DNA of 64,000 bases, taken from positions 4,836,001 to 4,900,000 of the forward strand of contig NZ_AP022590.1 of the NCBI RefSeq assembly GCF_010731775.1, in the 5' to 3' direction. The notes under the pieces were generated by a model. It was not told the DNA's origin. It did no database searches and saw only the letters and a list, made by a program, of their open reading frames with translations. Made by a program: the position numbers and the translations under genes. Within the stretch, counting starts at the first letter, position 1. The number at the start of each line of letters is the position of its first letter. Below, in pieces: positions 3,833 to 13,444 of this stretch. Source of the DNA: Mycobacterium mantenii (GTDB lineage: Bacteria > Actinomycetota > Actinomycetes > Mycobacteriales > Mycobacteriaceae).

Positions 3833-4531
3833 TCAGGCAGTGGCCCGCAGCGGGCGGCGCCGGCGATTCGGGCCCGGCCCGGATCGGGCGCCCGCCTCGG
3901 CGCGCCGGGCCAGCGCCTTGGGGTTGATGATCACAACGGTCTTGCCTTCCAACAGGATCCAGCCCCGAGTGGCGAAATTGCGCAACGCCCTGTTCACCGA
4001 AACCCGGTCCGCGCCCACGAGTTGGGCCATCTCGTCCTGGCTGAGCTCGAGTGCGAGCCGCAGCACGTCGCCCTCGCGGGTGCCGAACCGCTCGCCCAAC
4101 ACCAGCAGCTGACGGGCAACGCGCGCGGTGACATCGCTGGAAACCAGTTCGACGAGTTGTCGTTCGCTGTGCTGCACCTGCCGGGTCATCGTGCGCAGCA
4201 GCTGTTCGGCGATGGCCGGCTGTTGTGCCATCAGTGCGCGCAGTGCGGCGCGGTCCAGCGACATCGCCCGCACATCGGTGATCGCGGTGGCGGTGCACGC
4301 GCGGGGACCGGGATCGAACACCGCCAGCTCGCCGAAGATGTCCGCGGGGCCGATGATCGCCCGGAGGCTGCAGCGCCCGGCGGGCCCGCGATAGCTGATC
4401 TTCACCGCCCCTTCGACGATCAGATAGACGCGATCACCGGGCTCGCCCTGGCTGAAAATTGTTTCGCCGGACTTGAATTCGGAGGTGCGTACCTGAACGT
4501 GGTCCGCACCGCGGCCGGATGCAGTGGTCAC
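3833..4531 (-). CDS. Crp/Fnr-family regulator, paralog of mycobacterial Crp
   Basis: 232 residues, GTG start with GAGGGGG about 5 bases upstream. The N-terminal half is a cyclic-nucleotide-binding fold with a phosphate-binding cassette FGELAVFDPGPRACTAT, close to the GEL...FDPGPR cassette of Mtb Crp (Rv3676). A dimer helix and a C-terminal winged helix follow (LSQDEMAQLVGADRVSVNRAL). The recognition helix reads ADRVSVNRAL, whereas Mtb Crp as I recall it has ASRETVNKAL, so the Glu that contacts the TGTGA half-site in Crp proteins is Val here. cAMP binding looks plausible; DNA specificity may differ. It starts 13 bp after the GarA-like gene on the same strand. I know of no counterpart at this locus in M. 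tuberculosis, so I regard it as accessory. Confidence 0.85.
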   Translation of the reverse strand: MTTASGRGADHVQVRTSEFKSGETIFSQGEPGDRVYLIVEGAVKISYRGPAGRCSLRAIIGPADIFGELAVFDPGPRACTATAITDVRAMSLDRAALRALMAQQPAIAEQLLRTMTRQVQHSERQLVELVSSDVTARVARQLLVLGERFGTREGDVLRLALELSQDEMAQLVGADRVSVNRALRNFATRGWILLEGKTVVIINPKALARRAEAGARSGPGPNRRRRPLRATA

Positions 4532-4544
4532 GAATCCCCCTCGG

Positions 4545-4988
4545 TCAGGGCGCTTCGGCGGTCAGGAAAACCAGCCGGAAATTGCCGATCTGGACTACGT
4601 CGCCGTTGGCCAGCACCGCGGAATCGACGGTGGCGCGGTTGACGTAGGTGCCGTTGAGGCTGCCGCGATCGACGACGCGGAATTCGCCGTTCTCGGTGCG
4701 GAATTCGGCGTGCCTGCGGCTGACCGTGATGTCGTCGAGGAAGATTTCGCTGGCGGGATGCCGCCCGGCGTTCATGACCGGCTGGTTCAACACGAATGTC
4801 GCCCCGACGTTGGGACCCCGCTTCACCACGAGCATGGCCGAGCCGCGAGTCAGCGTCGCCGCCGCTTCGACTACGGCCGACGAGCTGTCGATCTCATCGC
4901 GGGCATCGGCACGCAGCGACTCGATATCGCCGGTGGCATCATCCGCCGCGGCTCGCTGCTGGCTTGTGTTTTCCTGTGGTAATGACAC
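4545..4988 (-). CDS. FHA-domain protein, GarA-like paralog
   Basis: 147 residues. The C-terminal two thirds is a forkhead-associated domain very like GarA (Rv1827): SAMLVVKRGPNVGATF, GRHPASEIFLDD, TVSRRHAEFR, GSLNGTYVN, and the ending NGDVVQIGNFRLVFL. The phosphothreonine-pocket Arg (GRHP), Ser (SRRH) and Asn (LNGTY) are all present. GarA binds 2-oxoglutarate dehydrogenase and glutamate enzymes and is switched off when PknB or PknG phosphorylates an N-terminal ETTS motif. Here the matching stretch is DIESLRADARDEID, without the Thr pair. The copy therefore looks constitutively unphosphorylated at that site. The gene lies directly upstream of the Crp paralog and is probably co-transcribed with it. 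Confidence 0.88.
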   Translation of the reverse strand: MSLPQENTSQQRAAADDATGDIESLRADARDEIDSSSAVVEAAATLTRGSAMLVVKRGPNVGATFVLNQPVMNAGRHPASEIFLDDITVSRRHAEFRTENGEFRVVDRGSLNGTYVNRATVDSAVLANGDVVQIGNFRLVFLTAEAP

Positions 4989-12000: not shown

Positions 12001-12325
12001 TGGCCCGCACGAACAGCCCGTTCTTCCCGGCGTCCATGCCGCCGGGCGGCAGGGTGGAGACCACCAGGCCGCCGCCGGCGGGCAGGGTGGCGATGGCCGG
12101 GCAGGGAATGGAGATGTCCAGCGCGCGGGGCGCCCCCGACACCAGGGGCGCGGTGATCTGGCTGACGTGCCCGTCCGTGCTGCCTTGGGGCCACAACACC
12201 GTCGCGGTGGTCTGCTTCACCGGAAGCAACGGGACAGACAGGCACAGCAGCAGACCCACGATGCCCGCGATGGCGGCCACCGACCGGGGGATCCGCTGCG
12301 ATCGCTCTTTACCGTCGTGGGGCAC
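8999..12325 (-). CDS. embA: EmbA, arabinosyltransferase
   Basis: 1108 residues, GTG start. Same architecture as EmbB and EmbC: N-terminal membrane anchor (about residues 14-32), periplasmic region, many spans, C-terminal carbohydrate-binding module. The acidic loop is [20 protein letters not shown]. EmbA and EmbB form a heterodimer that makes the terminal Ara6 motif of arabinogalactan, which carries the mycolates. In most mycobacteria embA follows embC closely. Here embC ends about 2 kb upstream, with an ArsR operon and an embR fragment between them, so embA probably relies on a promoter in the 69 bp before its start or inside the fragment. Confidence 0.97.
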
Positions 12326-12394
12326 GAGGCTCGATCGTAAGCGACGCGGCTTAGTCCGCTAAGGACGCGGGGCCGCGCAACGGGTCGGAGATGA
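12326..12394. other. Short interval between embA start and the embR remnant
   Basis: This 69-bp stretch separates the divergent embA start from the first in-frame codon of the embR fragment. It should contain whatever embA-embB promoter survives. I see no convincing -10/-35 pair or palindrome. If the missing 5' part of embR once lay here, a deletion may also have removed the original divergent promoter region. Confidence 0.4.
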
Positions 12395-12817
12395 GTCGGG
12401 TTCACGGTCAACGCGCTGCAGCAACGCATTTTGCGCCAGGAGCCGCTGGGCCCCGAACAACCCGAACGGGCGGGCGAGCTGGCCGTGATGACCACCCACA
12501 AGCACAGCACCGTCCGCTCGGAGTCGGCGGCGGCGTGGGTCGACGATCTGGTCGTCGCGGGGCTGCGTGACAACGCCTGCCGCCTCTATCAGCTCAGCGG
12601 TGTGACCACCCGGATAGGACACCTCGACGACACCGCGGTGAGCCGCCACCATGCCGTGATCATCGATACCGGGAAGGACTTTCTGATCACCGACATGAAA
12701 TCGACCAACGGTGTGCAGGTGCAGGGCCGGTGGGTGCAGCGCAGCGCCACCCTCGAAGACGGCGATCACATCCGTATCGGCAACTCCGAGTTCGTCTTCG
12801 AAATCCGGCCCGCCTGA
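12395..12817 (+). pseudogene. embR: embR remnant: end of BTAD plus FHA domain only
   Basis: The frame opens right after a stop at 12392-12394 and first reads NALQQRILRQEPLGPEQPE, which resembles the end of the BTAD segment of EmbR as I recall it (ILRQQPL). A near-complete FHA domain follows (TRIG, VSRHHAVIIDTG, STNGVQVQ, EDGDHIRIGNSEFVFEI). Full EmbR has about 388 residues with an OmpR-type DNA-binding domain, BTAD and FHA; the first two thirds are absent. The loop between RIG and SRHH is about 7 residues shorter than in EmbR. The pThr-binding Arg, Ser and Asn are kept. A TTG at 12431 could start a 128-residue FHA-only protein, so a residual decoy role cannot be excluded. M. avium has embR beside embA. 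Confidence 0.8.
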
Positions 12818-12820
12818 ACG

Positions 12821-13444
12821 CTATTCGCCGATGCGGGCCGCCAGGGTGGCGAGCCCCGGGCCATCGAGGTCGGCCAGGGCGGCCGGACGTCCGGTCATCG
12901 CCAGCAGCAGCGCCTCGCCGGGGCCGGTCACCTCGGGCCCGTCGCCGTGCGTCCACTCGACGTCGGTGGCGCGCAGCCGCAAACCCCTGATCCGGCGTCC
13001 CGCACCGAGCCGGGGGTTACCGGGCACCAGGGGAAGGATTCGTTCGAGTCGATCGGGTGGTACCTCACGCGGCCGGCCCAGCGCGCGGCGGATGTCCTGG
13101 TGATGGATCGTGCCGTCGATGAGTGCGATCATGCCGCCGAAACCTGCTGTCAGCCCGCGTGGTTGGAGATGGCTGCGCAGGAATTCCAGTAGCTGTTGCG
13201 GGGTCAGGGCCGCGAATTCGTCGACACCCACCTGGTTGGCCCGCACGATCCGGCCCTTGGTGAACCGTTTCAGCAGCCCCAGCGCACCGAGATCCTCATA
13301 GCTGATCACATGCGCGACAACGTCTTTCACATTCCATCGGGTGCACAGGGTGGGCGCCTCCCAGTCCTGCGGTGTCAGGGTGGCCAGGAATTCCGCGAGG
13401 TCGGCCCGCTCGGCGCGGGCCATGGTCATCAGGTCGGACGTCAT
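12821..13444 (-). CDS. DinB-like / maleylpyruvate isomerase family protein (TIGR03083 type)
   Basis: 207 residues. It has the pattern of the mycothiol-associated DinB-like superfamily: CTRWNVKDVVAHV near residue 35 and GTIHHQDIRRALGRPREVP near residue 112, supplying the conserved His ligands of the divalent-metal site. Members are predicted mycothiol-dependent transferases or isomerases; the substrate here is unknown. The ATG overlaps the stop of the upstream SRPBCC gene by 4 bases (ATGA). It is the last gene of an ArsR-SRPBCC-DinB operon placed between embC and embA. Confidence 0.8.
   Translation of the reverse strand: MTSDLMTMARAERADLAEFLATLTPQDWEAPTLCTRWNVKDVVAHVISYEDLGALGLLKRFTKGRIVRANQVGVDEFAALTPQQLLEFLRSHLQPRGLTAGFGGMIALIDGTIHHQDIRRALGRPREVPPDRLERILPLVPGNPRLGAGRRIRGLRLRATDVEWTHGDGPEVTGPGEALLLAMTGRPAALADLDGPGLATLAARIGE

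What the first reader, a model, noticed from the sequence alone, without database searches (positions are those of the whole stretch)
12395..12817. embR cut down to its FHA domain beside embA
The sequence shows an FHA domain preceded by the last residues of a BTAD segment and then a stop, with no DNA-binding domain. EmbR is the PknH/PknA-phosphorylated activator of the emb genes, so a promoter-proximal loss of its DNA-binding part could rewire emb control and ethambutol tolerance. The pThr-binding residues survive and a TTG could start an FHA-only protein, so it may act as a phospho-decoy instead of being dead.
Basis: partly seen in the sequence, partly recalled or inferred. Interest (0 to 1): 0.7.

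Follow-up and report, generated by a model that had tools for sequence, protein, structure and literature searches.

The report
Decaying leftover of a duplicate regulator
Beside the cell-wall gene embA this mycobacterium keeps only the tail of a spare regulator gene, with the phosphate-reading site damaged too, while an intact sister copy sits elsewhere; several relatives have lost the same spare gene, so it looks like ordinary gene decay.

Summary
The truncated gene is real. Window 12404-12817 (+) is the last 37% of an EmbR-type gene (end of BTAD plus FHA). M. colombiense and M. vulneris carry a full 384-aa gene at the same place, divergent from embA. Against L009 944 nt are gone: 224 nt of spacer and codons 1-240. 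(1) The phosphothreonine-binding residues do not all survive: the arginine equivalent to M. tuberculosis EmbR R312 is His, and 7 residues after it are deleted; 62 of 62 named loci keep the arginine. (2) The embA core promoter region is kept: TAC[GC]AT stands 8 nt before the GTG in 49 of 49 distinct upstream regions, this one included. A full-length EmbR lies beside pknH elsewhere in this genome. In 14 of 28 relatives in my tree the embA-side embR is gone, and a single-loss clade is rejected; 4 of those 14 genomes show no EmbR match at E 1e-40. Best reading: a decaying remnant of a dispensable second embR, one of several independent losses in the M. avium complex. Expression, decoy function and any drug effect are untested.

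The parts
12404..12817 (+). embR remnant: codons 241-384 of the M. colombiense gene less 7, with stop (end of BTAD, linker, FHA)
   Evidence: tblastn/blastn to L009-L013 and DNA alignment A1; Pfam FHA
12392..12394 (+). in-frame TGA that closes the frame just upstream of the remnant
   Evidence: sequence, ORF extent
12399..12404 (.). deletion junction: window matches L009 up to 4062 on the embA side and from 5007 on the embR side (944 nt of L009 missing: 224 nt spacer plus codons 1-240)
   Evidence: blastn, alignment A1
12620..12622 (+). codon at the phosphothreonine-binding Arg position (R312 of M. tuberculosis EmbR), here His
12623..12628 (+). site of the 21-nt in-frame deletion (7 residues DDNEIVL of relatives), which lie between GACGACA direct repeats in the intact gene
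   Evidence: alignment A1
12641..12643 (+). conserved Ser (S326 equivalent), kept
12707..12709 (+). conserved Asn (N348 equivalent), kept
12488..12817 (+). ATG-started 109-aa frame, as in public entry P0001
8999..12325 (-). embA (GTG start at 12325)
   Evidence: ORF list; start aligned in relatives
12326..12376 (-). 51-nt embA upstream block (core promoter region), complete here
   Evidence: 44-49 of 51 positions shared with each of the 14 relatives without embR, 27-49 with all 48 other distinct regions
12334..12339 (-). TACGAT, -10-like, 8 nt before the embA GTG (leaderless start inferred)
   Evidence: TAC[GC]AT at this place in 49 of 49 distinct regions; function inferred, the consensus scan found no sigma-70-type pair
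12821..13444 (-). neighbour gene, MDMPI_N domain protein; used with embA for the tree
   Evidence: Pfam

Best explanation
The feature is a decaying remnant of the second, embA-linked embR paralogue of the M. avium complex. A deletion (944 nt measured against L009) removed the embR promoter side, start, DNA-binding domain and nearly all of the BTAD, but stopped outside the embA upstream block that relatives conserve. A 21-nt deletion and a substitution, in unknown order, also broke the phosphothreonine-binding loop of the remaining FHA domain. The cell keeps a full-length EmbR beside pknH, so the loss was tolerated; several relatives have lost the same gene completely. Shown: the deletion, the altered site, the intact paralogue, the losses in relatives. 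Inferred: that the remnant has no function, that losses were independent, that embA is transcribed leaderless from the retained block, and that GACGACA repeats caused the 21-nt deletion.
For: Junction and losses by alignment. Arg in 62 of 62 named loci and 154 of 157 proteins, His plus 7-residue gap here. Intact pknH-linked EmbR-type gene at G000:C1:2917810-2919204. In 14 of 28 relatives the gene is gone, with no embR-like stretch left in 14 of 14; a single-loss clade is rejected (p-AU 0.00045). In M. lepraemurium the gene is broken in frame. 4 of those 14 genomes have no EmbR match at E 1e-40. The remnant's model falls to pLDDT under 50 at residues 68-70, just past the deletion (mean 73.0 against 80.0 for the intact control).
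Against: The remnant frame is still open, its one indel is in frame, and window-branch changes (12.5 nonsynonymous, 16.5 synonymous) do not differ from those on the G362 side (8 and 14; Fisher p 0.77), so neutral decay is not shown. The predicted fold is still FHA (best PDB matches 2FF4/2FEZ). P0001 has 4 member sequences; these may be other strains that keep the remnant, or repeat records. Change counts on the tree cannot tell gain from loss, and the tree has only 9 of 26 inner branches well supported.
Confidence: 0.85

Rival explanations
1. The remnant makes an FHA-only protein that competes for phosphorylated PknH or other kinases (phospho-decoy), in the way EmbR2 is reported to inhibit PknH.
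For: Open frame with usable ATG/TTG starts; Ser and Asn of the site kept; FHA fold predicted; precedent EmbR2 (PMC4601284, passages).
Against: Arg to His and 7 residues missing in the binding loop; a review passage says that mutating highly conserved FHA residues nullifies EmbR phosphorylation by PknH; embR start and promoter side lost; EmbR2 is a full-length homologue (recalled), 56% identical to EmbR.
Confidence: 0.05
2. The deletion rewires embAB transcription and ethambutol response by removing the local activator and its upstream binding region.
For: 224 nt of the embA/embR spacer of L009 and the local embR are gone; older reports of EmbR control of embCAB in M. tuberculosis (PMC4601284, passages).
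Against: embA upstream block complete; intact pknH-linked EmbR remains; 14 of 28 relatives lost the gene and 4 of these 14 have no EmbR match at E 1e-40; in M. tuberculosis embR deletion did not change embCAB transcripts or ethambutol MIC (PMC9239209).
Confidence: 0.08
3. A genuine, unrelated FHA-only gene family of about 128 residues.
For: Short FHA proteins are listed in the protein search, 40 of 54 candidates at E 0.001, though that search admits only lengths of about 70-224 aa.
Against: Homology runs through the BTAD end and linker of embR at the syntenic place; the best hit after the window's own entry, P0002 (117 aa), lies on a 521-base contig and is 98% identical to the tail of the full-length gene of G362.
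Confidence: 0.02

Closest known systems
EmbR of M. tuberculosis (Rv1267c, name recalled; PDB 2FEZ, 2FF4)
   Same: C-terminal FHA and linker align over residues 244-381
   Different: No DNA-binding domain, only the end of the BTAD; R312 position is His; 7 residues missing; not beside pknH. The likely counterpart here is the intact pknH-linked gene.
embA-linked embR of M. colombiense / M. vulneris (384 aa)
   Same: Same place, same orientation, 80-82% identity over the tail
   Different: There the gene is full length; here codons 1-240 are deleted.
EmbR2 (reported PknH inhibitor; strain CDC1551, recalled)
   Same: EmbR homologue in addition to EmbR
   Different: EmbR2 is full length (recalled); inhibition was reported for it (PMC4601284, passages), nothing is measured here. 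Orthology to the embA-linked copy not tested.
M. lepraemurium embR next to embA (L012)
   Same: Decayed embA-linked copy
   Different: Frame broken rather than 5'-truncated.

Membership tests
[quoted passage not shown]
   No hit in the remnant at E up to 1; present in L009 EmbR and the pknH-linked copy
EmbR (SARP regulator with FHA) | BTAD (PF03704) | tested here: not met
   Only the last ~10 residues by alignment; no Pfam hit
EmbR (SARP regulator with FHA) | C-terminal FHA domain | tested here: met
   PF00498 E 2.6e-13, profile positions 13-67 of 67
EmbR (SARP regulator with FHA) | Phosphothreonine-binding Arg, Ser, Asn (R312, S326, N348) | tested here: not met
   Ser and Asn kept, Arg replaced by His with 7-residue gap; numbering read from the 2FEZ alignment, role recalled from Molle 2003, not read
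Gene remnant (pseudogene) | Intact orthologue at the same place in relatives, with loss of start and promoter side | tested here: met
Gene remnant (pseudogene) | Relaxed selection | tested here: inconclusive
   12.5 N / 16.5 S on the window branch against 8 / 14 on the G362 side, p 0.77; against the neighbour gene (5 / 13) p 0.36
EmbR2-like kinase decoy | Binds or inhibits PknH without being phosphorylated | not testable with these tools
   needs protein and kinase assays

The most novel reading that the evidence does not exclude
The FHA-only remnant is expressed and kept as a small regulator that acts without classical phosphothreonine binding (for example by docking to PknH or to the full-length EmbR), one step of a lineage-wide hand-over in which the M. 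avium complex repeatedly dropped the local embA activator while keeping a fixed embA upstream block.
Probability: 0.05. Interest if true: 0.55.

Novelty: new member of a known kind. Interest (0 to 1): 0.22.

Why it matters
The single remnant is ordinary decay. The wider pattern is of some use: within close relatives the embA-linked embR seems to have been lost several times, the 14 lines without it all keep the embA upstream block (44-49 of 51 positions as in the window), and 4 nearly complete genomes show no EmbR match at E 1e-40. That fits the newer M. tuberculosis result that EmbR does not control embCAB in normal growth (PMC9239209), and gives natural loss lines to test it.

Tried and rejected
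Considered and rejected: an unrelated short FHA family (syntenic embR homology through BTAD end and linker); assembly error (single-contig genome; P0001 lists 4 member sequences, which may be repeat records), though I could not inspect reads; loss of all EmbR in this genome (intact copy found); one shared ancestral loss (AU test; the remnant also shows that its own ancestor had the gene). A first branch count failed because the broken M. lepraemurium gene misaligned; it was redone without it. In one search the embA comparison (window 1 N, 17 S; p 0.007 against the remnant) was not used, as the G362-side embA counts (28.7 N, 24.3 S) look misaligned. The consensus scan found no sigma-70-type pair or terminator in 12200-12900; the -10-like element rests on conservation alone. 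The 14-mer GCGGCCCYGCRTCC of the embA block occurs once exactly in the window and is not enriched (2 hits with up to one mismatch; 30 of 100 shuffles reach that). The motif's looser form stands at the same place in 41 of 49 upstream regions. Paper searches (15 listed of 20; 15 of 29; 6 of 7; 8 of 8; 1 of 1) showed, by title or abstract start, no report of embR loss beside embA; open-licence papers only, so this is weak evidence of absence. A paper on M. colombiense genomes names embR only as broadly present (PMC12875251, passages). PMC2640153 was looked at for embR and held nothing. The species of the window was not identified.

Full report
What is there. The window's open frame 12395-12817 (+) follows an in-frame TGA. 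Pfam sees only FHA-type domains (FHA, and the related Yop-YscD_cpl), FHA from profile position 13 on. The best solved structure is M. tuberculosis EmbR (2FEZ), aligned over 244-381, i.e. the end of the BTAD, the linker and the FHA domain. So the observation that an EmbR-type gene is cut down to its FHA end beside embA is right.

What it was. In genome contigs 62 loci encode a relative; the closest three (80-82% identity: two M. colombiense records and M. vulneris) have an open frame of 386-440 codons stop to stop with a 384-aa EmbR, divergent from embA at the same place. One blastn piece joins window and L009 up to window 12399 / L009 4062, the next begins at window 12404 / L009 5007 (alignment). 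The segment between, 944 nt in L009 (1,015 in L011), holds in L009 224 nt of spacer and codons 1-240 of 384. The start, promoter side, DNA-binding domain and nearly all of the BTAD are gone.

The binding site. Read from the 2FEZ alignment, R312, S326 and N348 of M. tuberculosis EmbR correspond to His (12620-12622), Ser (12641-12643) and Asn (12707-12709) here. Just after the His, 21 nt that encode DDNEIVL in relatives are missing; in the intact gene they lie between two GACGACA copies, which suggests slippage (inference). All 62 named loci and 154 of 157 proteins have Arg there. The 157 are the 160 proteins held less the window's own P0001 and two remote hits, P0039 and P0040; the exceptions are P0027 (gap), P0029 and P0030. 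The claim that the phosphothreonine residues survive is therefore wrong in its key residue. The role of these residues is recalled from Molle 2003; a review says that mutating highly conserved FHA residues nullifies phosphorylation by PknH (PMC4601284, passages).

Structure. AlphaFold2 with a 24-row alignment gives mean pLDDT 73.0 for the remnant, with a drop below 50 at residues 68-70, just past the deletion (and in the N-terminal linker, 1-5 and 7-36), and 80.0 for the intact M. colombiense tail with the same 23 other rows. The remnant's model still matches EmbR best (2FF4, 2FEZ). Such models are weak judges of small deletions.

The embA side. Seventy-four nt upstream of the embA GTG (12326-12399) remain. 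TAC[GC]AT stands at the same place, 8 nt before the GTG, in 49 of 49 distinct upstream regions, the window's included; TACGAT in 32. A start codon 8 nt after a -10 element fits leaderless transcription (inference). Over the 51 nt next to embA the window shares 44-49 positions with each of the 14 relatives without embR and 27-49 with all 48 other regions (lowest L013). So the deletion removed the local regulator gene and the far spacer, not the part of the embA upstream region that relatives conserve.

The other copy. The genome holds a full-length EmbR-type gene (Trans_reg_C, BTAD, FHA) at G000:C1:2917810-2919204 (longest frame 465 aa; the homology begins at 2918068), followed by a kinase with a PknH_C domain; two ABC transporter genes lie upstream and an adenylate cyclase gene downstream. 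This neighbourhood is that of embR-pknH in M. tuberculosis (gene order recalled). The copy has the Arg, Ser and Asn (alignment). The remnant is thus of a second, embA-linked paralogue.

Relatives. I built a tree of 29 rows from the embA 5' part and the neighbour gene: the window and 28 relatives chosen by me from the loci, leaving out repeats of one genome and more distant rows, so the proportions are not a survey. Of the 28, 13 have an intact gene, M. lepraemurium has it broken in frame, and 14 have none; in the 14, the 53-189 nt between hold no embR-like stretch. The rows outside the M. avium complex in the tree have the gene, so loss is taken as derived (midpoint root). Holding the 14 and the window as one clade is rejected (p-AU 0.00045); the fewest changes are 3 (two states) or 4 (three states), and such counts cannot tell gain from loss. 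Because the window still holds part of the gene and sits among lines that lost all of it, several independent losses are the simplest account; but only 9 of 26 inner branches are well supported.

Is EmbR needed at all? With the pknH-linked protein as query, 12 of 16 chosen genomes (the 14 without the embA-linked gene, and G257 and G362) have a match at E 1e-40; the 4 without (G389, G314, G155, G072) are all among the 14 and are 99-100% complete. Of the 10 of the 14 with a match, G408 shows only a 58% one, and the matches of G142, G127 (one TGA each) and G382 (four TGA) hold stops, which may lie in the N-terminal extension of the query. Across 396 genus genomes 193 had an EmbR match at E 1e-120.

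Selection. On the window branch of the tail I count 12.5 nonsynonymous and 16.5 synonymous changes, on the G362 side 8 and 14 (Fisher p 0.77). Against the neighbour gene (5 and 13) p is 0.36. This shows neither relaxed selection nor present constraint; much of the branch may predate the truncation.

Literature. In M. tuberculosis, deletion of embR changed neither embCAB transcripts nor ethambutol MIC under normal growth, and EmbR was not phosphorylated there (PMC9239209; abstract and passages). Older work, as told in a review, has EmbR phosphorylation raise embCAB transcription and ethambutol resistance (PMC4601284, passages). EmbR2, a second EmbR homologue, is reported to inhibit PknH (same passages), the precedent I know for a decoy. 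An M. [quoted passage not shown]

Verdict. A real, well-explained gene remnant, with intact paralogue and parallel losses in relatives. The decoy and drug-tolerance readings lack support. Interest is low for the remnant and modest for the pattern of losses.

Noticed in passing
window 4545-4988 (-): A 147-aa FHA protein, GarA-like by recall of the GarA sequence (not compared by a tool), lies beyond embB, next to a Crp-type regulator at 3833-4531 (-).
   Followed up: partly
genomes G389, G314, G155, G072: No EmbR match at E 1e-40 with the pknH-linked protein, although 99-100% complete: some relatives may lack both EmbR copies.
   Followed up: partly
L158 between embA and the neighbour gene; also L146, L150, L152: The embA spacer holds repeated GGGGCCGCGCAG-type units, a tandem copy in L158 (by eye); such repeats could promote the deletions.
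   Followed up: no
L012, the embR frame that begins at 4201: M. lepraemurium embA-linked embR is broken in frame, another decayed copy.
   Followed up: no
window 12326-12376 (-): embA upstream block with a GCGGCC[CA][CT]GC motif of unknown role, at the same place in 41 of 49 distinct regions.
   Followed up: partly
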